This document shows positions 49,673 through 62,942 of a stretch of DNA of 64,000 nucleotides, one piece after another. The translations under genes were made by a program, and so were the position numbers. Below the pieces are notes generated by a model. That model was not told the DNA's origin and did no database searches. It was given only the letters and a program-made list of their open reading frames with translations. Every line of letters begins with the position of its first letter. The first letter of the stretch is position 1. This stretch comes from Candidatus Desulfofervidaceae bacterium (GTDB lineage Bacteria; Desulfobacterota; Desulfofervidia; Desulfofervidales; Desulfofervidaceae), in the NCBI GenBank assembly GCA_027038965.1, contig JALWFG010000011.1:1-64000 (forward strand). Direction: 5' to 3'.

Positions 49673-49954
49673 ATTTGCCCCCTTTGTCCCTAAGTCTAAT
49701 TAGTTTAGTTGTAAAAGGTTAACCTCTAAATGTCAAATTCCAAAGTTTTTGAGTAAAGAGATTTTACCCACTTGGGCTAGAGATATAAGAGAAATTAGAA
49801 TAAAAACTTAACAACTAAGCACTAAGGCCAAGAACTTGCAGGGTTTCTTTTAGAAACAAAGGAGGATTCCACTATAAAATACTTGACTTTAACTTGAAGT
49901 TAGTTTATACTTCGTTCCAAAATGAAACACTAATAAGAAAGGGGGGTGAAAAGG

Positions 49955-50245
49955 ATGAAAAAAGGAAAGAAAAAATGGATGTTTTTTTTGATGTTTCTGT
50001 TTTATCCTGTTTGGGTGTGGGCCGGTGAAGCCACTAAAGAACCCTTACATCATGTAGCGGACATTAGCAGGGCTACAAATTTTTTTACCAAATGGTTAGC
50101 TGAAACCTATAATAATAATCGTCTATTGCACTCCATTGCCTGTATAATCATCATGGCCGTGATGGGAATAGTATTGGCCTATCTGACAGAATGGATTATG
50201 GGAATGCTTGGGTACAAGGCAGAAAAAATGGACCATACAGAGTAA
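49955..50245 (+). CDS. Small membrane protein before TauE/SafE
   Basis: A 96-aa protein with a signal-like N-terminus (WMFFLMFLFYPVWVWAGEA), a periplasmic stretch (ATNFFTKWLAETYNNNR), and one C-terminal membrane helix (IACIIIMAVMGIVLAYLTE). I do not recognise a family beyond its tie to the following permease, 15 bp away. ATG at 49955 follows GGGGGG; a GTG nine bases upstream is in frame. It is the first gene of the sulfur-permease and kinase cluster. Confidence 0.75.
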   Translation: MKKGKKKWMFFLMFLFYPVWVWAGEATKEPLHHVADISRATNFFTKWLAETYNNNRLLHSIACIIIMAVMGIVLAYLTEWIMGMLGYKAEKMDHTE

Positions 50246-50260
50246 TTTTAGGAGGAAAAG

Positions 50261-51262
50261 ATGGATATTTTTCACATTTACCTTCCTATTGCAGGGGTGG
50301 AATTTAACATCCTTATCTTGTTAGCAATAGGATTTTGTTTAGGTGTAATGGGAGGTTTCTTTGGCATGGGAGGGGGATGGATTGTTACCCCTGCTCTTAA
50401 CATCTTTGGTTTTCCCATGCCTCTGGCCATTGGGACGGATTTGCTTCATATCTATGGTAAGTCTATTGTAGCCGTGAAAAAGCATGCCAAGCTAGGGAAT
50501 GTGGATATTCCTTTAGGCATCCTTGTTTCAATTGGCATGATGATTGGAGTAGAGTTAGGTGCCAGAGTAGTTATGTTTTTGGCTGCTAAGGGTCTAGCGG
50601 GTCCTATTATTCGATATGTGTATATGATCCTTTTGGCCTTTTTGGGTTGTTATATCCTTTATGATTATTATACTGCAATAAAAAAGGTTCCAGTAAAAGT
50701 TCCCAAAACATCTAAAGTTTCTTCTAAACCTGGTTTGGCTGCTAAGATTCAGCATATCAAGGTGCCTCCCATGATTTCCCTAAAGGCAAGTGGGGTAAAG
50801 GTGTCTTTTTGGACATTGTTTGGTATTGGTGTTTTAATTGGGATTATGGCAGGGTTTATGGGTGTAGGTGGGGGGTTTGCCTTGGTGCCTGCATTTATTT
50901 ATCTAGTAGGGGTTCCTACAGCCGTGGCAGTAGGTTCAAGCTTGCTTTGTTGTGTAATTTCTGGAGCTTATGGCGGATTTAGTTATTCTATGAAGGGAAG
51001 AGTAGAGATTGTGGCGGCCATGATTTTGCTCCTTGGAGCATCTATTGGTGCTCAAATAGGGGCCTCAGCCGTAAAATATGTAAGGGGTTATGGGATTAGG
51101 TTTCTTTATGGAGTTATGTTGCTGTTGGCTGCTACTTCTGTGCTCTTGAAACAAATGAAAATGTCTCAAGCAGCAGGAATAATGGTGTTGGGTTCGGCAC
51201 TTACTATTTCAGGCATCATTACCTTTTATTTGGTAAGGGGACTTATTGCCGAAAAAGGATGA
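50261..51262 (+). CDS. TauE/SafE family anion permease 1
   Basis: A 333-aa permease with about eight helices in two repeats. Each repeat carries the family glycine motif: GFFGMGGGWIVTPALNIFG near residue 30 and GFMGVGGGFALVPAFIYL near 205. The insert between repeats (PVKVPKTSKVSSKPG) is cytoplasmic or periplasmic and basic. The family exports sulfite, sulfoacetate or related anions; the substrate here is unknown. It has a paralogue at 54804-55742. Confidence 0.9.
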   Translation: MDIFHIYLPIAGVEFNILILLAIGFCLGVMGGFFGMGGGWIVTPALNIFGFPMPLAIGTDLLHIYGKSIVAVKKHAKLGNVDIPLGILVSIGMMIGVELGARVVMFLAAKGLAGPIIRYVYMILLAFLGCYILYDYYTAIKKVPVKVPKTSKVSSKPGLAAKIQHIKVPPMISLKASGVKVSFWTLFGIGVLIGIMAGFMGVGGGFALVPAFIYLVGVPTAVAVGSSLLCCVISGAYGGFSYSMKGRVEIVAAMILLLGASIGAQIGASAVKYVRGYGIRFLYGVMLLLAATSVLLKQMKMSQAAGIMVLGSALTISGIITFYLVRGLIAEKG

Positions 51263-51411: not shown

Positions 51412-52887
51412 ATGCAGAACGATGAAAATAATAAAGGCCTTAGAAAGGTTTACAGGTGTTTATGTAAATGGTGGCAATCTCTACGTGGCAGAATTGCTGC
51501 TCTCTCAATCTTTTATTTTCTGTTGCTCTTATTGAGCGTTTTTTTACATTACTGGAATGTTAATAAAATTGTAAATAAATTCCTCTTTTTAGCGAAGTGT
51601 GATGAATATGTGAATAATATTTTGGAGGTAAGAAGATACGAAAAAAATTTTCTTTTATATGGAGAGAAAGATAGTTATACCCATGCTGTCCTTTATCTCC
51701 AAATTAGCGAGTCCTTTCTAGAATCCAACGAAAGTTTAATTGTAGATGTTCTTGGAGTTGATGTCTATTTTCACCTAAAAAGAAAACTTAAGCAATACAA
51801 GAATGTTTTTACTAACCTTTACCGTCAGGATTATCCTAAAAATAAAAAAGGGATTTTAGAAAAGGAACTCCGTAACTTAGGTCGGGATATTGTAAATACC
51901 TCAATTAATCTGGATTTACGAATAAAACTAAGCATTCAAAATGCCCTCCTTAGATGGAAGCATCTTTCTGTTTTGTTTGCCACAATTGTAGTTTTTGGTC
52001 TTATGATTTTACTATTTCTTGTATTCCACTATGTTATTGTTCCTTTACACTTTATTCAGCATTCTACAAAACAAATAGCTGAGGGCAATTTTAATTTGTT
52101 TCCTAAACCAAAACACTCTTTAGAAGAGATTAGTAGCCTTGTAGATGGCCTAAACAAAATGATGCAAGAGTTGGAGCTCCGGAGGGAACAATTGATTCAA
52201 GCCAAAAAAATGGCATCTTTAGGGACGTTTACTGCGGGAATTGCCCATGAAATCAATAATCCCCTTAACAATATCTATCTGAGCGCAGAGATGTTTTTGG
52301 AAGAATATGGGGAAAGGCTTACCCCTGATCAAAGGGAATATATTGAGGATATTTTGCAACAGGCCCAAAGGGCAAGCAACATTGTAGGTAATCTTCTAGA
52401 TTTTTCAAGGGCCAAACGGTATAAAATAGGGGAAGTGAATATTGCAGATGTGATTAATAATGTTGTTAAGGTTGCTAAAAATCAAATCCGAATAAGTCAC
52501 ATTGATTTAAAAATGGATTTGCCAGAAAATTTGCCTAGGATAAAGGCAGATCCCAATAGCCTTAGGCAGGTATTTATAAATCTTATTGAAAATGCCATTC
52601 AAGCTATGCCCAAAGGAGGGGTTTTAGAAATTAGGGCCAAAGAGGAGGGCAATTATCTAAAAATAGATGTATCGGATACGGGAATGGGCATTCCTCAAGA
52701 AAACCTTCATCGTATCTTTGAACCATTCTTTACTACTAAAGAAAAGGGAACTGGTTTAGGATTGGCAGTAACTTATGGTATTATAAAAAAACATGGAGGG
52801 ACTATTAAAGTTAAAAGTAAGCCTAATAAAGGAACTACTTTTACAATTCTTTTACCCATAGAAAGAGATGTTACGGAATCAGATTAG
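51412..52887 (+). CDS. Membrane histidine kinase of the TauE/Usp cluster
   Basis: A 491-aa sensor kinase. Membrane helix near residues 25-45, a helical periplasmic sensor of about 135 residues (RRYEKNFLLYGEKDSY suggests a four-helix bundle), second helix near 186-210, HAMP (FIQHSTKQIAEGN), a coiled coil, HisKA with TAGIAHEINNPLNNIYL (His near residue 279), then HATPase motifs NLIENAIQAMP, DTGMGIP and TKEKGTGLGLAVTYG. It overlaps the response regulator by 20 nt. The signal is unknown. Confidence 0.93.
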   Translation: MQNDENNKGLRKVYRCLCKWWQSLRGRIAALSIFYFLLLLLSVFLHYWNVNKIVNKFLFLAKCDEYVNNILEVRRYEKNFLLYGEKDSYTHAVLYLQISESFLESNESLIVDVLGVDVYFHLKRKLKQYKNVFTNLYRQDYPKNKKGILEKELRNLGRDIVNTSINLDLRIKLSIQNALLRWKHLSVLFATIVVFGLMILLFLVFHYVIVPLHFIQHSTKQIAEGNFNLFPKPKHSLEEISSLVDGLNKMMQELELRREQLIQAKKMASLGTFTAGIAHEINNPLNNIYLSAEMFLEEYGERLTPDQREYIEDILQQAQRASNIVGNLLDFSRAKRYKIGEVNIADVINNVVKVAKNQIRISHIDLKMDLPENLPRIKADPNSLRQVFINLIENAIQAMPKGGVLEIRAKEEGNYLKIDVSDTGMGIPQENLHRIFEPFFTTKEKGTGLGLAVTYGIIKKHGGTIKVKSKPNKGTTFTILLPIERDVTESD

Positions 52888-54214
52888 GATTGCCATTATA
52901 GAAGACGAAAAGGTTGCCTGTAAGCATTTGTTACGTCTCTTTACAAAGGAAAACTATGAAGTGGCCGTTTTCCATTGTGGAAGAGAGGCTTTCAAAGGAT
53001 TGTTTCAACAACCTTTCTCTATCGTTTTGCTTGATTTGAAGCTTCCTGATATAGATGGACTTCAAATTTTGGAAGAAATTAAAAGAAACTTTCCAGAAAC
53101 CGAAGTTATTATTATGACCGGTTATGGTTCTATTGAGACGGCTATAGAGGCGATTAAAAAGGGCGCCTTTCATTATTTAACAAAACCGGTGAAACTGGAT
53201 GAACTTAGATCTCTTGTTAAGAAGATAGAGGACAAAATTCAGTTAAAAGAGGAAAATCGCCGCTTAAAAGAAACCTTAGCTCGTTATACTTTTGCCGATC
53301 TTGTGGGTAAAAGTTTAAAGATGCAAAAAATATATCGGACAATCATCAAAGTTGCCAGGGTAGATTGTAATGTTCTTATTCATGGAGAGACGGGGACAGG
53401 TAAAGAGTTGGTAGCTAGGGCTATTCACTATTATAGCAAGAGAAGAGAGAACCCTTTTGTTCCTTTCAATTGTGGTGCCTTTACAGAAGAATTAATTGCT
53501 AGTGAGCTTTTTGGATATGAGAAAGGGGCCTTTACAGGGGCCTTTCGGACAAAAATTGGCCTCTTAGAAGCTGCAAACAAAGGGACCGTTTTTTTAGACG
53601 AGATAGGAGAGATGCCTCTTTCCATGCAGGTTAAACTCCTGCGTGCCATAGAAGAAAAGAAGATTACAAGAGTGGGGGGTATTCGACCCATTGAATTGGA
53701 TATTAGGATTATTGCGGCTACTAATCGAGACTTAAGAAAACTGGTAGCAACAGGTAAATTTAGAGAAGACCTTTTTTATCGTCTTAACGTGGTTTTTATC
53801 CATTTACCTCCACTTAGAGAAAGAAAAGACGATATCCCCCTTCTCATTCAATACTTTTTGAAAAAATACAACAATTTTTTCGGGAAAAAGATAAATGGAA
53901 TTGCTCAAAATGCCTTGAAGTGTCTTTTAAAATATCCCTATCCTGGGAATGTAAGGGAACTCGAAAATATCATTGAAAGGGCAGTGGCCTTGGCTGAGGG
54001 ATGCGAAATTAGCATAGAAGATTTGCCTCAAGATATCTCAGAATTTGAGATTATGGCAGAAGAAGAGATCCCCTTTTCTATAGCCGAGCAAGAAAAACAA
54101 CATATCCAAAGGGCCTTAGAAGTGACAGGCTATAATAAAACTGCTGCCGCCAAGCTTTTGGGACTTTCTCGAACTACCTTATGGCGCAAATTAAAAAAAT
54201 ATGGGCTATTGTAA
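52868..54214 (+). CDS. Sigma-54 response regulator of the TauE/Usp cluster
   Basis: A 448-aa NtrC-type activator: receiver (IIEDEKVACKH, VLLDLKLPDIDG, TKPVKLDE), AAA+ with GETGTGKELVARA and YEKGAFTGAFRTKIG, and a Fis-type helix-turn-helix at the end (YNKTAAAKLLGLSRTTLWRK). Its start lies inside the kinase gene. A sigma-54 promoter and three TGAAACACT boxes follow immediately downstream of its stop, so it probably controls the next genes. Confidence 0.93.
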   Translation: MLRNQIRIAIIEDEKVACKHLLRLFTKENYEVAVFHCGREAFKGLFQQPFSIVLLDLKLPDIDGLQILEEIKRNFPETEVIIMTGYGSIETAIEAIKKGAFHYLTKPVKLDELRSLVKKIEDKIQLKEENRRLKETLARYTFADLVGKSLKMQKIYRTIIKVARVDCNVLIHGETGTGKELVARAIHYYSKRRENPFVPFNCGAFTEELIASELFGYEKGAFTGAFRTKIGLLEAANKGTVFLDEIGEMPLSMQVKLLRAIEEKKITRVGGIRPIELDIRIIAATNRDLRKLVATGKFREDLFYRLNVVFIHLPPLRERKDDIPLLIQYFLKKYNNFFGKKINGIAQNALKCLLKYPYPGNVRELENIIERAVALAEGCEISIEDLPQDISEFEIMAEEEIPFSIAEQEKQHIQRALEVTGYNKTAAAKLLGLSRTTLWRKLKKYGLL

Positions 54215-54225
54215 CTGTTTTAATA

Positions 54226-54265
54226 TGAAACACTAAAAACAAGATTGAAACACTTTTGAAACACT
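54226..54265 (+). promoter_or_regulatory. Three TGAAACACT boxes, enhancer-site candidates
   Basis: Exact 9-mers at 54226-54234, 54246-54254 and 54257-54265 lie 52-91 bp ahead of the sigma-54 promoter at 54317. A fourth exact copy is at 49923-49931, just before the small membrane protein that opens the cluster. The spacing is what an NtrC-type activator would use. Confidence 0.6.
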
Positions 54266-54316
54266 TCTTAATTTTCATTTCTTGGCATTTTCATATATAT
54301 CCAGACTTTTTTAAAT

Positions 54317-54332
54317 TGGTCTATAATTTGCA
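54317..54332 (+). promoter_or_regulatory. Sigma-54 promoter before the first Usp gene
   Basis: The site TGGTCTATAATTTGCA has GG at 54318-54319 and GC at 54330-54331, exactly 10 bp apart, with a good TTTGCA -12 part. The predicted start near 54343 is about 3 nt before the ATG chosen for the Usp-like gene. Confidence 0.6.
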
Positions 54333-54345
54333 ATTTATCTTTTAT

Positions 54346-54780
54346 ATGCAGGCATTTATTTTAGTAGCCCTTAACGATCAGGACTCTATTTTCGCCCCGT
54401 TAACTTATGCCCAAGGCCTTGCTGAGAGGCTAAATGCTAGATTACAGATGCTGTTTGTGTTTACTAAAACTAGTCCGAGTAAACAAAGAGAAATCTTCAG
54501 GCTTATTGTGCCGTTTGTTGAGAGGTCTAAGACAAGGGGCCTAGAAATTGAATGTTTTTTTACTAAGGGGGATTTTATAGAAGAGGTTTTTAAGTTTTGC
54601 CAACAATACCGAGCGGATATTGTAGTAATGCCTTCAGCAGAAAATGAAGGAAAACGAAAGTCTTATAGCAGTCAGATTAATGAGTTTCAAAAGAAATTGC
54701 AGCGACCGGTAATTTTAGTCAATAAAAAATCCAAGAAAGGGGGGATGCCAGACGCAGAAACATTTGATGGGACGGATTAA
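54346..54780 (+). CDS. Universal stress protein-like, single domain
   Basis: A 144-aa Usp-like alpha/beta protein: strand AFILVALNDQDS, helix LTYAQGLAERLNARLQ, then FTKGDFIEEVFKFCQQYRADIVVMPSA and the final RPVILVNKKSKK. The usual ATP loop G-x2-G-x9-GS is not clear, so nucleotide binding is uncertain. I start at ATG 54346; a longer frame from 54256 would add 30 hydrophobic residues and run through the sigma-54 site and two TGAAACACT boxes. It is followed 23 bp later by the second permease. Confidence 0.7.
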   Translation: MQAFILVALNDQDSIFAPLTYAQGLAERLNARLQMLFVFTKTSPSKQREIFRLIVPFVERSKTRGLEIECFFTKGDFIEEVFKFCQQYRADIVVMPSAENEGKRKSYSSQINEFQKKLQRPVILVNKKSKKGGMPDAETFDGTD

Positions 54781-54803: not shown

Positions 54804-55742
54804 ATGAGCTGGTGGCTTTATTTACCGATTGCGGGGACAAGTATTAACATTTTTCTTTTGTTTGGATTAGGTGGTTTAGTAGGGCTTTTATCAGGCCTAT
54901 TTGGAGTTGGGGGTGGTTTTTTAATGACACCTCTCTTGATTATGATAGGAGTTCCTCCTACTGTAGCGGCGGCCTCAGACTCTAATCAAATTGTAGCGGC
55001 ATCTACTTCTGGTTGTTATGCCCACTATAAGTTGGGGAATGTAGACTTCAAAATGGGAACCCTTTTGCTTATCGGTGGCGTTGTTGGAGGTACAGTAGGT
55101 GTTAAATTTATTCAAATCTTAAGGGCGCTTGGTAATGCAGATTTTGTGATTAAGGTTACTTATGTTATCATGCTGGCCAGTATCGGTGGATATATGTTTT
55201 ATGAAAGTCTTCAAAGTCTTAAAAAGGCTAAGGCTCCTCAAATATCCGAGACGGCGGAAATAGAACCAAAACCTTCGGCCTTTAGTCGCTTTGTAGCTAA
55301 TTTGCCTTTTCAGATGGATTTTCCTAAATCAGGTGTACGCCATTCCCTGTTTTTACCCTTGATTTTAGGCACTTTTGTTGGAATTTTGGCCGCTATTATG
55401 GGTGTAGGTGGAGGATTCATTATGGTTCCAGTTATGGTTTACCTTTTGAGAATGCCCATGCATGTAGTTGTAGGAACCAGTCTTTTTCAAATCCTTTTTA
55501 CCTGTATAAATGTTACCATTATGCAGTCCTATATGAATCATACGGTAGATTTTATTCTGGCCTTGATTTTGCTCCTTGGTTCTACTATAGGGGCTCAAGT
55601 AGGGGCGAGGCTTTGCAAACTCCTTAAAGGCGATCAGTTAAAACTGCTTTTGGCCTGCATTGTCCTGCTGGTGATGGTGAAGATGCTAGTTGGTCTTTTG
55701 GTTACTCCACACCTCTTACTTTCTTACAAAGGAGGTCACTAA
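54804..55742 (+). CDS. TauE/SafE family anion permease 2
   Basis: A 312-aa paralogue of the first permease. Glycine motifs SGLFGVGGGFLMTPLLIMIG (residue 30) and AIMGVGGGFIMVPVMVYLL (about 200). Also ASDSNQIVAASTSGCYAHYK in the first repeat, with GSTIGAQVGARL in the last. AGGAGGGG precedes the start. It shares one base (TAATG) with the TIGR02186 gene, which is often its neighbour. Confidence 0.92.
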   Translation: MSWWLYLPIAGTSINIFLLFGLGGLVGLLSGLFGVGGGFLMTPLLIMIGVPPTVAAASDSNQIVAASTSGCYAHYKLGNVDFKMGTLLLIGGVVGGTVGVKFIQILRALGNADFVIKVTYVIMLASIGGYMFYESLQSLKKAKAPQISETAEIEPKPSAFSRFVANLPFQMDFPKSGVRHSLFLPLILGTFVGILAAIMGVGGGFIMVPVMVYLLRMPMHVVVGTSLFQILFTCINVTIMQSYMNHTVDFILALILLLGSTIGAQVGARLCKLLKGDQLKLLLACIVLLVMVKMLVGLLVTPHLLLSYKGGH

Positions 55743-56536
55743 TGATGAGAATAAAAAGAACAGGGTTAATTACCATTTTGGTTGTTTTGTTAGTAGGAAT
55801 GAGTTTTTCTCATGGAGCTGAAATAGAAAAAAAACCTGTCCTACACGTTCAACCCAATAAAATCCACATTGGTTCCTTTTTTAAAGGGCAGAAGGTAAAA
55901 ATCTTTGGATACGTTCCTGTCTCCTGGGAAAATATAGCTATAAAGATTTGTGGTTCAAGGCACGATGTTGCCTTAAAACGTAAAGGGAAGGTAGGTGTTC
56001 TATGGATGAATGTGGGGACGGTGGAAGTGAAACATGCCCCTAATTTTTATTTGGTGGCTACTTCTGCAAATATTAATCAGCTTGCTCCCAAGCCCATTTT
56101 GGATCAGACAGAGATTGGATATGAAGCCTTGGCCAAAGAAATTGAGCTTCATTCTACTGTGCCAGGGGACAGTCCTGAATTTTTGTTCAAACATTTCGTT
56201 GCTCTAAAAGAGAAAGAAGGGCTTTATAGTATTCTCCCTAAAAGGATTACCTTTAATAAAGCAGAAAATAAAAATCTTAAAGCGTTTTCTTTGGAGCTAA
56301 TTGCCCCGGCTAAGATTCCACCTGGAGAATATAAGGTAACGCTGTATGGATTTGACAATGGGCAATTAATGGGTAGTTTGGAAAGTTTTTTTCATGTGGA
56401 GCTTGTAGGTTTTCCTGCCTTTTGCCGTAATTTGGCCTTTAAACATTCATTAATTTATGGTATCTTAGCAGTAGTACTGGCTATTATTGTCGGATTTTTA
56501 ATGGGGGTCGTTTTTGGTTCTAAAGGAGGGCATTAA
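55742..56536 (+). CDS. TIGR02186 family membrane protein
   Basis: A 264-aa protein of a family I recognise from repeated linkage to TauE/SafE permeases. An N-terminal signal helix (LITILVVLLVGMSFSHGAE) is followed by a periplasmic beta-rich domain (FFKGQKVKIFGYVP, KGKVGVLWMNVGTVE) and a C-terminal membrane helix (LIYGILAVVLAIIVGFLMG). Function unknown; a role as periplasmic partner of the permease is inference. A strong terminator follows. Confidence 0.85.
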   Translation: MMRIKRTGLITILVVLLVGMSFSHGAEIEKKPVLHVQPNKIHIGSFFKGQKVKIFGYVPVSWENIAIKICGSRHDVALKRKGKVGVLWMNVGTVEVKHAPNFYLVATSANINQLAPKPILDQTEIGYEALAKEIELHSTVPGDSPEFLFKHFVALKEKEGLYSILPKRITFNKAENKNLKAFSLELIAPAKIPPGEYKVTLYGFDNGQLMGSLESFFHVELVGFPAFCRNLAFKHSLIYGILAVVLAIIVGFLMGVVFGSKGGH

Positions 56537-56607: not shown

Positions 56608-59169
56608 ATGCTCAGTGTTTTAAAAAGAATTAAAGAAAAATTTTTTAACAAAAGACCTCCTAGAATATCAGGCGAAATTGCATTCAGAAGCGTTTTTGCC
56701 CGCTTTAGAGAGCTTCTTGATAACAACAATCGGGCCTTAGAAATCATTGCTGATATGGGAGAAAAGCTGAGTGGGGATTACATTTTTGATAAAACATATA
56801 TTATTAATTCCTATAATGAATTGGCAGATACAGTCTATAAAGTCATATACAATCTTAACATAATTTCCTCTAACAAATATATCAAACTTTATGACCGATT
56901 TGAGAATATAAATACTCAATTACGGGCCTTAATAGAAGGTAAAACCTATACCCTGATAGAAGACCTTGTTATTCCCATTGAGGGGTTAAACGAAGCCATT
57001 GCTGACATTGTTGGTAACAAGGCGGCTCGTTTAGGAGAAGTTAGGAATAAACTTAATTACCTTACTCCAGATGGATTTGCCATCACCATTACTGCTTATA
57101 AGCGATTTTTGGATTACAATGAGCTGAATGAAAGAATTGAAGAACTGTTGAAACTTTGGGACAGAGAAAGGGAAGAGAATACCGAAGAAATAACCACTGA
57201 AATTAGGTCTCTTTTTATAAAAGCAGAGTTGCCACCAGATCTTAAGGTAGAAATGGAAAGGGCAATACGCAAAATTGCAAGGCATAAAAATGTTCTCTTT
57301 GCTGTAAGAAGCAGTGCTGTAGGGGAAGATAGCGAATATAGTTTTGCTGGTCAATTTGAATCAGAACTTAATGTCCCTAAGGATGAAATCTTTAATGCCT
57401 ATAAAAAGGTTTTGGCCAGCCTTTTTAGCCCTAGGGCAATGACATATGCCTATCATAAAGGTTTTTCTCCCTTAGAATTACCTATGGCCGTGCTTTGTGT
57501 GGAAATGATTGCTGCCAGTGTAAGTGGTGTCATTTATACTATAGACCCTACAGATGCTTCTTCAAACACCCTGCTCATAAATGCCAATTGGGGATTAGGA
57601 AAAACCGTGGTTGAAGGAACCGCAAGTCTGGATCATTTTAAAATTTCACGAAATCCACCTTATCCTATTATAGAGCAAAAAATTAGTTCTGAGAAGACAA
57701 TGCTTTTGGCTCGCCCTGGAGGAGGGATTATCGAAACAGAGGCTCCGGCAAGCTCCTGCTTAACTGAAGAACAAATTAAAGAATTAGTAGAAGTGGTGCT
57801 TAATATAGAACGGTATTTCAAAAAACCCCAAGATATCGAGTGGAGTTATGATCAAAAAGGGGAATTGTATATTCTTCAAACCCGTCCCTTACGAGGAATT
57901 ACCGAGCCAACTAAGAGTTCGGTAGGACTTTCAGTCTTAAGAGATAAATATCGGGTTCTTTTAGAGAAAAAGGGAGTTATTGCTCAGCGAGGTGTTGGAG
58001 CTGGAAGGGTTTTTATAGCAGAAACCGATGAAGATATTGCTAACTTTCCGCAAGGGGGGGTTTTGGTAACTCGAAAGACATCTCCTCGCTTTGGACGCAT
58101 TATGCATAAGGTGGCTGCCATTATAACAGACATTGGCAGTCCTACTGGACACATGGCTTCTTTGGCAAGAGAATTTAGGGTTCCCGCCATAGTAGATACG
58201 GGAATTGCCACGCAAGTATTAAAAAATGGAATGGAGGTTACGGTTGATGCTGAAGAAAATGTTGTTTATGAAGGAATTGTTAAGGAGCTATTAGATTATT
58301 ATCTTATTAAAGAGATTCCCTTTGAAGATACTAGAGAATATCGGTTATTAAAACAAATTTTGTCTCGGGTGGCCCCGCTTAATCTTACTGATCCCAATGA
58401 TCCCAACTTTAATCCTGAAGGTTGTCATACCTTTCATGATATCTTAAGGTTTGCTCATGAAAAGGCAGTGGCTGAGCTTATTGAACTTCATATGGACAAG
58501 ACAGTTTGGGAAAATGTCCCTGCCAAAAAACTGAAAACGAAAATTCCCCTTGATTTGGTTTTAATTGATTTAGGTGGGGGGCTAGGTCCCGAGGCCGAAA
58601 AAAATACAACCATTTCCCCTCAGGATATAACCTCCTTACCCATGTCAGCCTTGTGGAAAGGACTTTCTGCCCCTGGCGTGTGGCGTACTGAGCCTGTATC
58701 GGTAGATTTTAAGGCCCTTATGTCAAGTATGACAAGCACTTTCCAAAGTCTTTCTTCTACGCCAAGATATTTAGGCCTCAACCTAGCCGTGGTTTCCAGA
58801 GAATATCTCAACCTGAGTTTGAGATTGGGATATCATTTTAACATGGTTGATGCTTATATGAGTGATAATATGGTGGATAATTATATCTACTTTCGTTTTT
58901 TAGGAGGGGTGACCGAAATTACTAGAAGAACAAGAAGAGCGCAACTATTAAGTAAAATTCTAGAAACTTATGATTTTAGAGTAGATACCAAAGGAGATTT
59001 AGTAGTAGCCAGAATTAGGGAAATTGGCAAAAAGGATGTGGAAGAAAGACTAGAGATGATTGGTCGTTTAATTGGTTTTACTCGTCAGTTAGATGTCATG
59101 CTGAAAAGTGATAAGGCCATAGATTATTATGTAGACCAATTTTTGTCTAATAAGTGGCAACAACACTAG
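56608..59169 (+). CDS. PEP-synthase-like protein with novel C-terminal domain, copy 1
   Basis: An 853-aa protein. Residues 1-125: helical N-domain. Residues 130-440: ATP-grasp PEP/pyruvate-binding domain (GNKAARLGEVRNKL, AVRSSAVGEDSEYSFAGQFE, DIEWSYDQKGELYILQTRPL). Residues 455-570: swivelling phosphohistidine domain with GSPTGHMASLAREFRVPAIV, His515. The C-terminal TIM barrel of PEP synthase is absent. Instead about 280 residues of unknown kind follow (LIDLGGGLGPEAE, SREYLNLSLRLGYHFNMVDA, RLIGFTRQLDVML). Autophosphorylation at His515 seems possible, but the target is unknown. A paralogue follows after a receiver gene. Confidence 0.85.
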   Translation: MLSVLKRIKEKFFNKRPPRISGEIAFRSVFARFRELLDNNNRALEIIADMGEKLSGDYIFDKTYIINSYNELADTVYKVIYNLNIISSNKYIKLYDRFENINTQLRALIEGKTYTLIEDLVIPIEGLNEAIADIVGNKAARLGEVRNKLNYLTPDGFAITITAYKRFLDYNELNERIEELLKLWDREREENTEEITTEIRSLFIKAELPPDLKVEMERAIRKIARHKNVLFAVRSSAVGEDSEYSFAGQFESELNVPKDEIFNAYKKVLASLFSPRAMTYAYHKGFSPLELPMAVLCVEMIAASVSGVIYTIDPTDASSNTLLINANWGLGKTVVEGTASLDHFKISRNPPYPIIEQKISSEKTMLLARPGGGIIETEAPASSCLTEEQIKELVEVVLNIERYFKKPQDIEWSYDQKGELYILQTRPLRGITEPTKSSVGLSVLRDKYRVLLEKKGVIAQRGVGAGRVFIAETDEDIANFPQGGVLVTRKTSPRFGRIMHKVAAIITDIGSPTGHMASLAREFRVPAIVDTGIATQVLKNGMEVTVDAEENVVYEGIVKELLDYYLIKEIPFEDTREYRLLKQILSRVAPLNLTDPNDPNFNPEGCHTFHDILRFAHEKAVAELIELHMDKTVWENVPAKKLKTKIPLDLVLIDLGGGLGPEAEKNTTISPQDITSLPMSALWKGLSAPGVWRTEPVSVDFKALMSSMTSTFQSLSSTPRYLGLNLAVVSREYLNLSLRLGYHFNMVDAYMSDNMVDNYIYFRFLGGVTEITRRTRRAQLLSKILETYDFRVDTKGDLVVARIREIGKKDVEERLEMIGRLIGFTRQLDVMLKSDKAIDYYVDQFLSNKWQQH

Positions 59170-59181
59170 GAGGGATCGAAA

Positions 59182-59568
59182 GTGAATAAAATAAAGGTGC
59201 TCGTTATAGATGATGAACCCATCGTATGCAAAAGATTAAAGGTAACTTTGGAGAAAATGGGTTTTGAAGTGGAAACCTTTACAGATAGTGTGGCAGCTCT
59301 GGAAAGGCTCAAAAAGACGGATTTTGACATTATAGTGACTGATTTAAAAATGGAAAAGGTAGATGGCATCCAAATTTTAGAGGCAGCAAAACAGAAAAAT
59401 CCTCAGACCGAAATTATCATTATAACCGGATTTGCCACCAGCGAAGCTGCCAAAGACGCCTTAAAGAAAGGGGCGTTTGATTTTATTGCTAAGCCGTTTC
59501 GCTTAGAAGACTTGCGCAATATTATTGTGCAGGCAACTGAGAAAATAGAACAGCAAAAAAATGTTTGA
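59182..59568 (+). CDS. Stand-alone receiver domain protein
   Basis: A 128-aa CheY-like protein: acidic pocket VIDDEPIV, phospho-acceptor Asp in IIVTDLKMEKVDG, Thr in IIITGFAT, Lys in IAKPF. It has no output domain. GTG start with AGGAGGG upstream. It sits 12 bp after the first PEP-synthase-like gene and overlaps the second by 8 nt, so the three are made together. It may take phosphate from the cluster kinase and touch the large proteins; inference. Confidence 0.93.
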   Translation: MNKIKVLVIDDEPIVCKRLKVTLEKMGFEVETFTDSVAALERLKKTDFDIIVTDLKMEKVDGIQILEAAKQKNPQTEIIIITGFATSEAAKDALKKGAFDFIAKPFRLEDLRNIIVQATEKIEQQKNV

Positions 59569-62134
59569 TTTCGTAAAAAAAATATTTTCCCGAAGAAGGA
59601 AGACTCGGAAAGAAATTGATGTTACTCAAAGATATTATAGTTTTAAAAATCTTCTTTTGACAAACAATGAATTGCTTGATCTCTTTAGTAGGCTTCAAAA
59701 GGAACTTAACAAATTTTATCTTAATGTTCCGGTAGTACGTTCTTTGATTATAAAAATTTTGGATACTACCTTTTTCCTTATTCAGAATCTTAATGAATTT
59801 ACCGATAACAAATATCAGGACCTTTATGAAGTTTTTATTAAATTAGATAGGCAAATTAGAGCCAACACAAATAGGCTTATTCCTGAATCCAAATTACTTG
59901 AACTGGCCATCCCCCTTTATGAAGCAGATGTAGATTTAATTGCCTTGGTGGGAGGAAAAGCCGCCCATCTTGGGGAGGTGCGTTCATACCTAAATCTTCC
60001 TGTACCTTCAGGTTTTGTGCTTACTACTACTGCATTTAAGAGGTTTATTGAACATAATAATTACAAAGAGATTATTGAAGAAAAGATAGAAAAAATAGAA
60101 TTAAACGATTTGGAAGCTGTCAATGAAGCAAGCCTTGAACTAACAGATTTGATCCGCAAAGGAGATATTCCTAATGATATTAAAGAAGCCATCGAGATTC
60201 AGTGGCAAAGACTTCAACAAAAATCAACTTTCTCAGGAATCGTGGCGGTGAGAAGTAGTGCTTATGGAGAAGATTCACAATTTTCTTTTGCAGGCCAGTT
60301 TAAGAGTGTTTTAGGTGTCAAAAAGGACAAATTATTAGAGGCCTATAAAGAAGTAATTGCCAGTAAGTATTCGCCTAGGGCTATTGTATACCGAATGCAA
60401 AAACGGATTAAAGATGAAGAGATGCCTATGGCGGTTTTGATTATAGAAATGGTTAATGCTAAGGCAGCAGGGGTTATTTATACTCGAGATCCAAGGCAGC
60501 CCCAGGAAGATAAAATGCTTATCACTAGCTATTGGGGATTAGGAGAGTATGTGGTAAGCGGTAAGGTCTCTACAGATTATTTTTGGGTTTCCCGAATAGA
60601 GGATGAAATAGAAGCTCACATTGCTCACAAAGAAGTAATGCTAGTTCTAGAAATAGATGGCATTAAAGAGAAACCTGTGCCATTAGACCTTAAAGATAAG
60701 TCTTCTTTAACCGAAAGTGAAATAAGTCTTTTAAAACAGTATGGATTGATTATAGAAGGACATTTTAATGCCCCTCAAGATATTGAATATGCCGTAAATA
60801 AGGAAGGCGTTTATATATTACAAACAAGACCTTTGAACATCTTAAGGGTTCTATCCCACAGATTTAATTCTCCAGCCAAGCCTCTTTTAAAGGGCATAAG
60901 CGTTAGTTTGGGGGTGGCTTCGGGCCCAGTGTTTATTTTAGATGGAAAGTCTTTAAGTGAAGTGCCCGAAGGGACAATCTTGGTGACCAAGCATACTTCT
61001 CCTGAGCTTGCTGCCTTAATCCCAAGGGTGTTGGGAATCATCACTGATCTTGGGAATCCAAGCGGACACATGGCAACTGTGGCCCGAGAAGAGGGTATTC
61101 CAGCAGTACTTAATACCCTTAAAGCAACCTCACTCTTAAGAGATGGCCAAATTGTTACTATAGATGGAAATAATGGAGTTGTTTATGATGGACGCGTAGA
61201 GGATATTCTTAAAACGGGAGAGGAATTAAAACCCAAGGCCGTTAAACGCGGGGAATCTGAAAACCTCAAGAAGACCTTAGAACTTATTTTGCCTCTGACG
61301 CTTTTAGACCCTCGGAGTCCCCAATTTCGCCCTCAGAGCTGTAAAACAATCCATGATATTATTCGGTTTATCCATGAAGTTTCTATTCAAGAAATGTTCA
61401 ATTTGAGTGATAAGGTGGCTTCTAGTAAACGCATGAAGGTGGTTCGGTTAATTTCCCATCTACCAGTGCCTGTGTTTATTATTGACTTGGGTGGAGGTAT
61501 AAACAAATCCGCTACCGAGGCAAAGGTAGTTAAACCAGAACAAATTACCTCTATTCCCTTTAAGGCCTTATGGCAAGGGATGAGTCATCCCAAGGTGCGT
61601 TGGAGTGGACCTGTTGGTGTTAATATCCAAGGCTTTATAGGGGTTTTAATGCGCAGTATGGCAGGCGCAGAAGGTAACTTGGGAGAACCTAGTTATGCTA
61701 TTATTTCCAAAGAATATATGAATTTCAATATTCGGCTTGCTTATCATTATTCCCTCGTGGATGCCTTTTGTAGTGAGATTGCAGCCAATAACTACATTAA
61801 TTTTCGCTTTTTTGGTGGTGGCGCAAGCGCAGATCGGCGCAGTCTAAGGGCCAAATGTATTGAAGAGATCTTGAAATATTTGGGTTTTTCAGTGATAAGG
61901 GAGGCTGATTTGATAAACGCTTGGTTTAAAAAATATCCCCTAGAAATTACAAAAGAAAAACTAGAGATACTTGGAAGATTGATGGGATTTACCCGTCAGT
62001 TGGATATGCTTATGGAGAATGAGGATGTTTGCTATATCTATGCGGACATATTTAAAAAAGGTGAATACGACTTAATTTATAAAGAAGACTTCTTAGAAAA
62101 GATAAGAAAGATCGGTGATCGTTCTCAAACATAG
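59561..62134 (+). CDS. PEP-synthase-like protein with novel C-terminal domain, copy 2
   Basis: An 857-aa paralogue of the gene at 56608. Same order: helical N-domain, ATP-grasp (GGKAAHLGEVRSYL, AVRSSAYGEDSQFSFAGQFK, DIEYAVNKEGVYILQTRPL), swivelling domain with GNPSGHMATVAREEGIPAVL, His503, and a C-terminal domain of unknown kind (FIIDLGGGINKSA, SKEYMNFNIRLAYHYSLVDA, RLMGFTRQLDMLM). The TIM barrel of PEP synthase and its catalytic cysteine are missing. Similarity to copy 1 is spread along the whole length, but well below that of a recent duplicate. Confidence 0.85.
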   Translation: MFDFVKKIFSRRRKTRKEIDVTQRYYSFKNLLLTNNELLDLFSRLQKELNKFYLNVPVVRSLIIKILDTTFFLIQNLNEFTDNKYQDLYEVFIKLDRQIRANTNRLIPESKLLELAIPLYEADVDLIALVGGKAAHLGEVRSYLNLPVPSGFVLTTTAFKRFIEHNNYKEIIEEKIEKIELNDLEAVNEASLELTDLIRKGDIPNDIKEAIEIQWQRLQQKSTFSGIVAVRSSAYGEDSQFSFAGQFKSVLGVKKDKLLEAYKEVIASKYSPRAIVYRMQKRIKDEEMPMAVLIIEMVNAKAAGVIYTRDPRQPQEDKMLITSYWGLGEYVVSGKVSTDYFWVSRIEDEIEAHIAHKEVMLVLEIDGIKEKPVPLDLKDKSSLTESEISLLKQYGLIIEGHFNAPQDIEYAVNKEGVYILQTRPLNILRVLSHRFNSPAKPLLKGISVSLGVASGPVFILDGKSLSEVPEGTILVTKHTSPELAALIPRVLGIITDLGNPSGHMATVAREEGIPAVLNTLKATSLLRDGQIVTIDGNNGVVYDGRVEDILKTGEELKPKAVKRGESENLKKTLELILPLTLLDPRSPQFRPQSCKTIHDIIRFIHEVSIQEMFNLSDKVASSKRMKVVRLISHLPVPVFIIDLGGGINKSATEAKVVKPEQITSIPFKALWQGMSHPKVRWSGPVGVNIQGFIGVLMRSMAGAEGNLGEPSYAIISKEYMNFNIRLAYHYSLVDAFCSEIAANNYINFRFFGGGASADRRSLRAKCIEEILKYLGFSVIREADLINAWFKKYPLEITKEKLEILGRLMGFTRQLDMLMENEDVCYIYADIFKKGEYDLIYKEDFLEKIRKIGDRSQT

Positions 62135-62201: not shown

Positions 62202-62942
62202 ATGGAAAAAAAGGTATTATGTCTTATTGACCACAGTTTGGAATCCAGCTATGCCCTTAGATTTGGATGTATGCTTGGTAAAAAGGGGGCTACTGTTCAT
62301 GCTATGCATGTGATTCAAACTATTCCTTTTGTGCTTAGGTGGGGTATGGGATATGCCAGGAGACACTGGGAAAAAGAGCAGATTGAAAAAATGGAAAGAG
62401 AGATTAAAAGAATGGTTACAAGCGAACCTCATTGCGATGCTGTTAAAATTAAGTCAGTAGTGAAGATTGGGAGTGTAAGTGGGGAAATATTGGATCAATT
62501 GAAAAAAGAATCTTACGATTTGGTTGTGGCCGGGGTTCATTATTCCCAGATTTCGCAAAAGCCATATTTGGGCAGACTGCATACAGACCTGATAGATCAA
62601 TCTCCTTATCCTATTGCTATGGTTACTTCATTTAAAATGCCAGACAAGGTTCTTTTATATCTAGACGGTACCATTTCTTCAGAGAAAACAAAGGAGTTTG
62701 TGAAACGCTTTTTTGAGGGAACTCAAATAAGTATTGTTACAGATTCCCATGAGGTTTTGGAACATTTCAAAGACATTGGGGAGGCCAAAATTATAGATAG
62801 AGACGAAGTTTTGGATGTCCTTAAGCAAATAGTGCCTAACATAGACACCTTTATAGTGGCTAGTGGGAATGTAGAGTTACTTTTATATCTATCTCGAGAA
62901 ATAGTTCCCGAAATAATGGGGGCCTTAATCCTCTATCGGTAA
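62202..62942 (+). CDS. Universal stress protein family, two-domain
   Basis: A 246-aa protein. Domain 1 starts KKVLCLIDHSLESSYALRFG, with HAMHVIQTIP and YDLVVAGVHYSQIS. The second half (about 146-246) is a shorter Rossmann-like unit (DKVLLYLDGTISSEKTKEF, DTFIVASGNVELLLYL) that looks degenerate. The ATP loop is not intact. AGGAGGGG precedes the start. It closes the cluster. Confidence 0.75.
   Translation: MEKKVLCLIDHSLESSYALRFGCMLGKKGATVHAMHVIQTIPFVLRWGMGYARRHWEKEQIEKMEREIKRMVTSEPHCDAVKIKSVVKIGSVSGEILDQLKKESYDLVVAGVHYSQISQKPYLGRLHTDLIDQSPYPIAMVTSFKMPDKVLLYLDGTISSEKTKEFVKRFFEGTQISIVTDSHEVLEHFKDIGEAKIIDRDEVLDVLKQIVPNIDTFIVASGNVELLLYLSREIVPEIMGALILYR

What the first reader, a model, noticed from the sequence alone, without database searches (positions are those of the whole stretch)
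56608..62134. Paired PEP-synthase-like proteins that lack the PEP-forming barrel
Both copies keep the ATP-grasp signatures and a swivelling-domain histidine (His515, His503), but residues 575-855 show a different conserved domain (GLG/LGGG segment, S+EY+N, RL+GFTRQLD) instead of the TIM barrel. They could phosphorylate a histidine and hand the phosphate to something other than pyruvate, for example the receiver encoded between them. The domain appears nameless to me.
Basis: partly seen in the sequence, partly recalled or inferred. Interest (0 to 1): 0.72.

Follow-up and report, generated by a model that had tools for sequence, protein, structure and literature searches.

The report
PEP-synthase-like kinases with unknown acceptor domain
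Two neighbouring bacterial genes encode enzymes that look like the front two thirds of PEP synthase but end in an unnamed domain; many sulfate-reducing bacteria carry such genes beside an anion transporter and a signalling receiver, so they are probably ATP-driven switches rather than carbon-metabolism enzymes.

Summary
Both proteins keep the ATP-grasp residues and the swivel histidine (His515, His503). The last ~285 residues have no Pfam, NCBIfam or PDB relative, do not match the PEP/pyruvate barrel in profile comparison, and are predicted as a mixed alpha/beta domain. A barrel-bearing protein of PEP-synthase length is encoded elsewhere in the genome.

The domain is widespread: 77 of 198 genomes of the phylum, up to 11 copies each, mostly dsrA-bearing. 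The best-matching copies sit in a conserved operon: TauE/SafE transporter, Alph_Pro_TM membrane protein, dikinase-like protein, single receiver. One branch sits in clusters matching the published Desulfovibrio 'nitrate cluster', where mutants in transporter, receiver and dikinase-like gene share one phenotype.

A clade of tandem paralogues lost the ATP site, kept swivel His and acceptor-domain residues, and always lies beside two intact copies. This argues that swivel plus acceptor domain is the working unit.

Best reading: an ATP-charged phosphohistidine dikinase with a new acceptor domain that controls anion transport. The acceptor is unknown. The receiver is possible but not favoured: a histidine kinase precedes it in many clusters, and a dual-specificity phosphatase neighbour suggests a phosphate ester product. 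New variant of a known kind.

The parts
56608..59169 (+). Dikinase-like protein 1 (P0001, 853 aa)
   Evidence: PPDK_N 133-433, PEP-utilizers 480-550
56608..56961 (+). N-terminal helical domain of protein 1 (about residues 1-118), no Pfam match; also found fused directly to the acceptor domain in L205
57004..57906 (+). ATP-grasp domain of protein 1 (residues 133-433; K138, R234, E411, Q424, R426)
58045..58257 (+). Swivel domain of protein 1 (residues 480-550), His515 codon at 58150-58152
58300..59157 (+). Unnamed acceptor domain of protein 1 (about residues 565-850); HDILRFAHE at 610-618 (58435-58461)
59182..59568 (+). Single-domain response-regulator receiver (128 aa, GTG start), Asp54, Thr82, Lys104
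59561..62134 (+). Dikinase-like protein 2 (P0002, 857 aa), from a different deep subfamily than protein 1
59942..60838 (+). ATP-grasp domain of protein 2 (residues 128-426), all five ATP-site residues kept
60965..61177 (+). Swivel domain of protein 2 (residues 469-539), His503 codon at 61067-61069
61217..62065 (+). Unnamed acceptor domain of protein 2 (about residues 553-835); HDIIRFIHE at 598-606 (61352-61378)
55742..56536 (+). Alph_Pro_TM membrane protein (PF09608)
   Evidence: 165.9 bits; upstream of the dikinase-like gene in 67 of 70 loci with room
54804..55742 (+). TauE/SafE-family transporter (PF01925)
   Evidence: upstream in 69 of 70 loci with room
54256..54780 (+). Small protein upstream of the transporter; reads like a universal stress protein to me but has no Pfam match
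   Evidence: 0 families; homologues at the same place in many loci
52868..54214 (+). Sigma-54-dependent response regulator (AtoC/NtrC type)
51412..52887 (+). Sensor histidine kinase, presumably the partner of the sigma-54 regulator
   Evidence: adjacency
50261..51262 (+). Second TauE/SafE-family transporter, at the head of the cluster
62202..62942 (+). Universal stress protein (PF00582), last gene of the run
   Evidence: 44.4 bits; homologue downstream of the receiver in 34 of 60 loci

Best explanation
These are dikinases of the PEP-synthase superfamily in which the pyruvate barrel is replaced by a new acceptor domain. ATP charges the swivel histidine (His515/His503) at the ATP-grasp domain (inferred from the superfamily mechanism; the residues are shown to be present). 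The swivel then turns to the acceptor domain, whose invariant residues (HD-xx-R-xx-HE, the Y-x-N...R..YH segment, FRF-x-GG, RR-x-RR, RQLD) hold the phosphoryl acceptor, most likely a hydroxyl group on a protein of the module or on a small molecule (inferred). The product switches on, or is needed for, transport by the TauE/SafE anion permease of the same operon, under control of the neighbouring receiver (inferred from gene order and from published mutants of a related cluster). Shown here: architecture, conservation, the missing barrel, the operon, and a paralogue clade whose ATP site decayed while swivel His and acceptor domain stayed, so that these two look like a unit that can be charged from outside.
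For: (1) All five ATP-site residues plus His in 193 of 212 full-length proteins; His in 211 of 212. (2) 18 proteins lost at least three of the five ATP-site residues (16 of them four or five, as aligned) and all keep His; on a tree of the acceptor domain ATP state changes only twice, the other change being L089:8348, which lost His, so the 18 are one clade. Within it the ATP-grasp region is 33% identical on average against 56% for the swivel and 52% for the acceptor domain, whereas in their intact neighbours ATP-grasp is 49%; the 18 loci carry 36 further intact copies, two each by my reading. (3) Precedent for a swivel/acceptor unit charged in trans: HpeHI (PMC12167813, abstract and passages). 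(4) No barrel: hhalign 0.07-2.2% vs 100% control; the genome's two PF02896 barrels lie elsewhere, in open frames of 826 and 606 aa, presumably PEP synthase and PTS enzyme I. (5) Operon: receiver downstream 72 of 79, TauE/SafE upstream 69 of 70, Alph_Pro_TM 67 of 70 (the 80 loci were the best scorers, so biased to one subfamily). (6) Genetics: in D. vulgaris isolated insertion mutants of DVU0251 (TauE), DVU0247 (receiver), DVU0246 (PPDK_N + PEP-utilizers) and DVU0250 grew alike with and without 100 mM nitrate (PMC4001038 passages); 39 of 41 clusters of that kind that I read have a dikinase-like gene with this acceptor domain. (7) Presence goes with dsrA: 72 of 77 carriers vs 27 of 121 non-carriers; the five exceptions are 62-80% complete genomes.
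Against: No biochemical evidence for any step. The transport link rests on one phenotype (nitrate resistance) in a related, not identical, cluster; the DVU0246 sequence itself was not held, only clusters of the same order in other Desulfovibrionaceae. The authors' own idea (leaky thiosulfate transport) is a hypothesis. DVU0245 (phosphatase) and its D. alaskensis homologue gave opposite fitness signs (-6.04 and +2.08), so kinase/phosphatase opposition is not clean; pooled fitness of DVU0250 (-5.82) disagrees with its isolated mutant. Relatives of 1,052-1,153 aa with a lectin-like tail (eight loci, L206-L213) do not sit beside TauE or a receiver, one (L211) only beside a DSP phosphatase, so transport control cannot be the role of the whole family. 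Three genomes of the same family as the window (G038, G107, G163) have dsrA but no copy, so it is not needed for sulfate reduction. The ATP-dead clade is one evolutionary event.
Confidence: 0.5

Rival explanations
1. Small-molecule dikinase: the acceptor domain binds a metabolite and phosphorylates it, in the way phenylphosphate synthase, HpeHI and rifampin phosphotransferase do; transporter and enzyme form an uptake pathway and the receiver only regulates it.
For: The characterised non-pyruvate members named in the passages I saw act on small molecules. Transporter and enzyme are adjacent. Some relatives have a lectin-like tail (PF06439 E 3.3e-6), which would suit a carbohydrate ligand in that branch.
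Against: No catabolic genes recur in the conserved neighbourhood, which holds receivers, kinases and stress proteins (only these gene types were looked for). Up to 11 paralogues per genome and ATP-dead partners look more like signalling than catabolism.
Confidence: 0.25
2. Dikinase-fed phosphorelay: phosphohistidine of the swivel domain passes its phosphoryl group to Asp54 of the neighbouring receiver, or the reverse.
For: Receiver downstream in 72 of 79 loci with Asp54 and Lys104 intact in 86 of 86; His-to-Asp transfer is ordinary chemistry; receiver and dikinase-like mutants share a phenotype; among the ORFs of 50-64 kb only one histidine kinase, next to the sigma-54 regulator, is present.
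Against: In 25 of 41 nitrate-type clusters the order is TauE, small protein, PtxB-like, HK, receiver, dikinase, phosphatase, giving the receiver a kinase of its own (my count from the listing); a histidine kinase directly follows the receiver in 7 of 60 canonical loci. No receiver-dikinase fusion noticed. This reading leaves the 285-residue acceptor domain without a job unless it docks the receiver.
Confidence: 0.15
3. Regulatory remnant: the proteins bind ATP and move the swivel domain as a sensor of energy charge, without phosphorylating any acceptor.
For: One clade tolerates loss of the ATP site.
Against: The swivel His, which only a phosphoryl carrier needs, is kept in 211 of 212 proteins, including the ATP-dead clade.
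Confidence: 0.07
4. Diverged PEP synthase/PPDK still making or using PEP.
For: The front part aligns with PEP synthase (2ols Z 38.7 over 303 residues, rmsd 1.6).
Against: No barrel by profile or Pfam; barrel-bearing proteins elsewhere in the genome.
Confidence: 0.03

Closest known systems
PEP synthase (pyruvate, water dikinase), e.g. 2ols
   Same: ATP-grasp domain followed by swivel domain in the same order; catalytic residues kept
   Different: Extra N-terminal helical domain; C-terminal barrel replaced by a domain that does not match it
Rifampin phosphotransferase RPH (5hv1)
   Same: ATP-grasp and His swivel with a third, non-pyruvate acceptor domain
   Different: Domain order (RPH: ATP-grasp, acceptor, swivel at the end); no likeness of acceptor domains seen in the searches run
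Two-component dikinases HpeHI / CreHI / PpsAB
   Same: Swivel plus acceptor unit charged in trans by a separate ATP-grasp protein, comparable with the ATP-dead paralogues found here
   Different: Here the ATP-dead paralogues keep a decayed ATP-grasp domain and lie beside full-length intact copies; different acceptor domain; signalling neighbours
Desulfovibrio 'nitrate cluster' DVU0251-DVU0245 / Dde_0598-0605
   Same: TauE-like permease, receiver and a PPDK_N + PEP-utilizers protein; matching clusters in relatives carry this acceptor domain
   Different: Has a phosphonate-binding-like protein, its own HK and a DSP phosphatase; Alph_Pro_TM is not among its listed genes
PTS enzyme I
   Same: Swivel domain with phosphohistidine
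   Different: No ATP-grasp; has the PEP barrel, absent here

Membership tests
PEP synthase (TIGR01418) | PPDK_N ATP-grasp domain with K, R, E, Q, R ATP-site residues | tested here: met
   all five present in both window proteins (that these are the ATP-site residues is partly recalled)
PEP synthase (TIGR01418) | Swivel domain with catalytic histidine | tested here: met
   His515 and His503
PEP synthase (TIGR01418) | C-terminal PEP/pyruvate barrel (PF02896) | tested here: not met
   no PF02896; one search finds PF02896 at two other places of the genome only; hhalign 0.07-2.2%
PEP synthase (TIGR01418) | Score over the equivalog cut-off | tested here: not met
   334.7 and 343.4 against 739.75 bits
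PEP synthase (TIGR01418) | Pyruvate + ATP to PEP + AMP + Pi | not testable with these tools
   needs an assay
Small-molecule dikinase (RPH/HpeHI type) | ATP-grasp plus His swivel | tested here: met
Small-molecule dikinase (RPH/HpeHI type) | Acceptor domain placed between ATP-grasp and swivel, swivel at the C-terminus (RPH order) | tested here: not met
   swivel directly follows ATP-grasp; order of RPH from PMC4844700 passages
Small-molecule dikinase (RPH/HpeHI type) | Acceptor domain homologous to that of RPH | tested here: inconclusive
   not among fold matches of the C-terminal model, which does not exclude it
Nitrate-cluster dikinase-like proteins (DVU0246 type) | Same acceptor domain | tested here: met
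   39 of 41 clusters; DVU0246 itself not held
Nitrate-cluster dikinase-like proteins (DVU0246 type) | Neighbouring receiver and TauE-like permease | tested here: met
   in the window
Receiver domain (PF00072) | Phospho-acceptor Asp and conserved Lys | tested here: met
   D54 and K104 in 86 of 86

The most novel reading that the evidence does not exclude
A third kind of phosphohistidine signalling beside histidine kinases and the PTS: ATP-charged swivel dikinases pass phosphoryl groups between paralogues (including obligate ATP-dead partners) and through a new acceptor domain onto a receiver or the transporter complex, and thereby gate anion uptake in sulfate reducers.
Probability: 0.2. Interest if true: 0.85.

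Novelty: new variant of a known kind. Interest (0 to 1): 0.62.

Why it matters
An unnamed domain occurring several times per genome in many sulfate-reducing bacteria replaces the business end of PEP synthase. It links a published but unexplained phenotype (loss of the cluster makes Desulfovibrio resistant to nitrate, which is used in petroleum production to hold these bacteria down) to a concrete enzyme chemistry that can be tested with purified protein, and it warns that genes annotated as PEP synthase or pyruvate phosphate dikinase on their front domains should not be counted in carbon-flow models without a look at their C-terminus.

Tried and rejected
Diverged PEP barrel: rejected by profile comparison (of 30 barrel loci, L246 and L247 were skipped for lack of length and three of the 28 used, L243, L265 and L266, came out short, probably in a wrong frame). 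Anti-phage defence: no PADLOC match. A sigma-54 promoter ahead of the operon: the consensus gave 33 matches in the window against 29.8 expected, so no support. A known fold for the C-terminal domain: Foldseek best E 0.014 (TM 0.23), VIA-align best Z 6.9 (phage T4 MotA, 105 residues, rmsd 4.1) and 6.3 (coproporphyrinogen oxidase, 141 residues, rmsd 4.7); these lie within the stated background, so neither a relation nor a new fold is claimed. TIM-barrel PEP enzymes were not among the listed C-terminal matches, which is no proof by itself. D. vulgaris Hildenborough was sought by published gene lengths among the 41 clusters; none had the full set. Receiver-dikinase fusions: none noticed among the loci. 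Coordinates of the models were not available, so the distance from His515 to the invariant acceptor residues could not be measured.

Rows dropped: A2 used 30 of 31 domain sequences (near-duplicate L027 left out). A3 used 105 of 107 locus copies (one with N, one cut) plus the window pair. The conservation count used 98 of 107 locus copies plus the two window proteins. The full-length model used 94 of those 100 sequences; six of the seven ATP-dead copies were left out. One search took 210 unique full-length sequences of 229 hits plus the window pair.

Papers: only passages found by search terms (with abstracts) of PMC4001038, PMC4641369, PMC3333781, PMC10102598, PMC4215793, PMC5840216, PMC12167813 and PMC4844700 were seen; none was read whole; PMC3333781 and PMC4215793 gave nothing on these genes. 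That the acceptor domain is not described in print rests on searches of the held open library only.
Full report
What is there. The two ORFs, 56608-59169 and 59561-62134, are real and adjacent on the + strand with a 128-aa receiver between them. They are 38% identical over 802 aligned columns. On a tree of the acceptor domain their nearest relatives are the two corresponding copies of another genome (L032), and beyond these different sets of proteins, so they belong to different deep subfamilies and are not a recent duplication. L032 is titled Candidatus Desulfofervidaceae and its first copy is 82% identical to protein 1 in the acceptor domain, so the window comes from that group (inference).

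Front part. Pfam gives PPDK_N and PEP-utilizers in both. K138, R234, E411, Q424, R426 and His515 of protein 1, and their counterparts in protein 2, are present; that these are the ATP-site residues is partly recalled knowledge of PPDK and partly seen in PMC4844700 (Lys22, Arg117, Glu297). The full-length AlphaFold2 model (mean pLDDT 86.1, pTM 0.69) aligns with PEP synthase 2ols (Z 38.7, 303 residues, rmsd 1.6) and with rifampin phosphotransferase within residues 117-556. The swivel part also matches swivel domains of pyruvate kinase and enzyme I.

C-terminal part. It has no match in Pfam (107 members scanned, only chance-level hits in one member each), NCBIfam or PDB sequences (profile, none at E 10). 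In profile comparison it does not match the PEP barrel (0.07-2.2% probability) while enzyme I and PPDK/PEP synthase barrels match each other at 100%. Its model (mean pLDDT 83.1, 107 sequences) alternates helices and strands without the eightfold strand-helix repeat of a barrel (my reading of the element list); fold searches gave no match above background. Conservation is that of an active site: among 107 sequences H56, D57, H63, H189, G212, G213 and R223 of the piece are invariant and R60, E64, D100, Y179, N181, N204, R209, D243, R272 and D275 nearly so.

Spread. In the phylum sample 72 of 77 carriers have dsrA over its cut-off against 27 of 121 non-carriers; the five exceptions are 62-80% complete. 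This is not corrected for relatedness.

Operon. In the 80 best-scoring loci (biased to relatives of protein 1) the order is transporter, Alph_Pro_TM, dikinase-like gene, receiver: TauE/SafE upstream in 69 of 70 and Alph_Pro_TM in 67 of 70 loci with room, receiver downstream in 72 of 79; a universal stress protein follows in 34 of 60, a histidine kinase in 7 of 60 and a second dikinase-like gene in 7 of 60. A histidine kinase with a sigma-54 regulator is often upstream. The window follows this plan and has a second copy after the receiver.

Link to published genetics. A second branch lies in clusters whose order TauE - small protein - phosphonate-binding protein - histidine kinase - receiver - dikinase-like - DSP phosphatase matches DVU0251-DVU0245 (L126; the receiver is seen). 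The phosphatase of L126 has relatives in 121 of 288 genomes of the family; of 41 clusters read (40 fetched of these, plus L126), 39 have a dikinase-like gene with the acceptor domain and 25 show all seven genes (the 25 is my count from the listing). In Korte et al. 2014 (passages) isolated insertion mutants of DVU0246, DVU0247, DVU0250 and DVU0251 grew alike with and without 100 mM nitrate, while the DVU0245 mutant and the control were inhibited. Pooled fitness was 11.44, 9.14, 2.18 and -6.04 for DVU0251, 0247, 0246 and 0245, and -5.82 for DVU0250, which disagrees with its isolated mutant. In D. alaskensis the listed genes including the phosphatase homologue were all positive. The authors suggest a leaky thiosulfate transporter. 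So transporter, receiver and dikinase-like protein act in one path there. Trotter et al. 2023 (passages) report a molybdate phenotype for a D. vulgaris cluster of histidine kinase, regulator, universal stress proteins and a PSE transporter, which resembles the upstream half of the window cluster in gene content; Marietou et al. 2018 (passages) note that functions of TSUP proteins in these organisms cannot be predicted. Whether the last two concern the same transporters was not tested.

ATP-dead paralogues. Of 212 full-length proteins, 193 have all five ATP-site residues and His; 18 have lost at least three of the five (16 keep at most one; L221 and L222 keep two Arg as aligned) yet keep His, R521, E522 and the acceptor residues; one (L089:8348) has lost His. 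All 18 have His in place of R614 of the acceptor domain, which is Arg in the other 194. On a tree built without that column ATP state changes twice in all, so the 18 are one clade. Their ATP-grasp region has drifted (mean 33% identity; length 246-408) while swivel and acceptor domain have not (56%, 52%); the 36 intact copies of the same 18 loci, sorted into 18 first-type and 18 other, show 49% in ATP-grasp. The conclusion that swivel and acceptor domain can work when charged by a partner is inference, with a precedent in HpeHI, where the H component lacks an ATP-grasp domain and alone moves phosphate between substrates (abstract).

Other variants. A 393-aa protein in a one-contig genome joins the N-terminal helical domain directly to the acceptor domain, without ATP-grasp or swivel, next to a DSP phosphatase; its first motif His is Tyr (L205). 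A 368-aa protein with the helical domain and what reads to me as a decayed acceptor part lies between a transporter and a receiver (L217). Copies of 1,052-1,153 aa carry a lectin-like tail and lie elsewhere.

Mechanism and verdict. The simplest account is a dikinase with a new acceptor domain that acts in control of anion transport. Charging of His by ATP: likely (0.8), from residues and superfamily. Acceptor held by the C-terminal domain: likely (0.7), from the ATP-dead clade. Control of TauE: about even (0.5), from gene order and mutants of the related cluster. Nature of the acceptor: open; receiver 0.15. It is not a PEP synthase (the defining barrel was tested and is absent) although it is built, and probably works, like one in its first half.

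Noticed in passing
L205:5308-6489 (minus strand): 393-aa protein made of the N-terminal helical domain and the acceptor domain only, beside a DSP phosphatase, in a one-contig 2.0 Mb genome; first motif His changed to Tyr.
   Followed up: partly
L206-L213 (e.g. L212:3314-6499): Dikinase-like proteins of 1,052-1,153 aa with a C-terminal lectin-like domain (PF06439 / PF21708 near cut-off), not next to TauE or a receiver.
   Followed up: partly
L217:1561-2667, L068:535-1641, L081:697-1956: Proteins with the helical domain and a decayed acceptor-like part, encoded between a TauE-type transporter and a receiver.
   Followed up: partly
L089:8348-10909: A copy that lost the swivel His (Pro instead) and two ATP-site residues but kept the acceptor-domain residues; the same locus has an ATP-dead copy that keeps His.
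   Followed up: no
window 49946-51262: A second TauE/SafE transporter preceded by a 99-aa protein that reads as membrane-spanning, at the head of the cluster; in gene content reminiscent of the molybdate-responsive PSE cluster DVU0542-0545 of D. vulgaris.
   Followed up: no
G038, G107, G163 (same family as the window): Genomes with dsrA but without any copy of the acceptor domain, so the system is dispensable for sulfate reduction.
   Followed up: no
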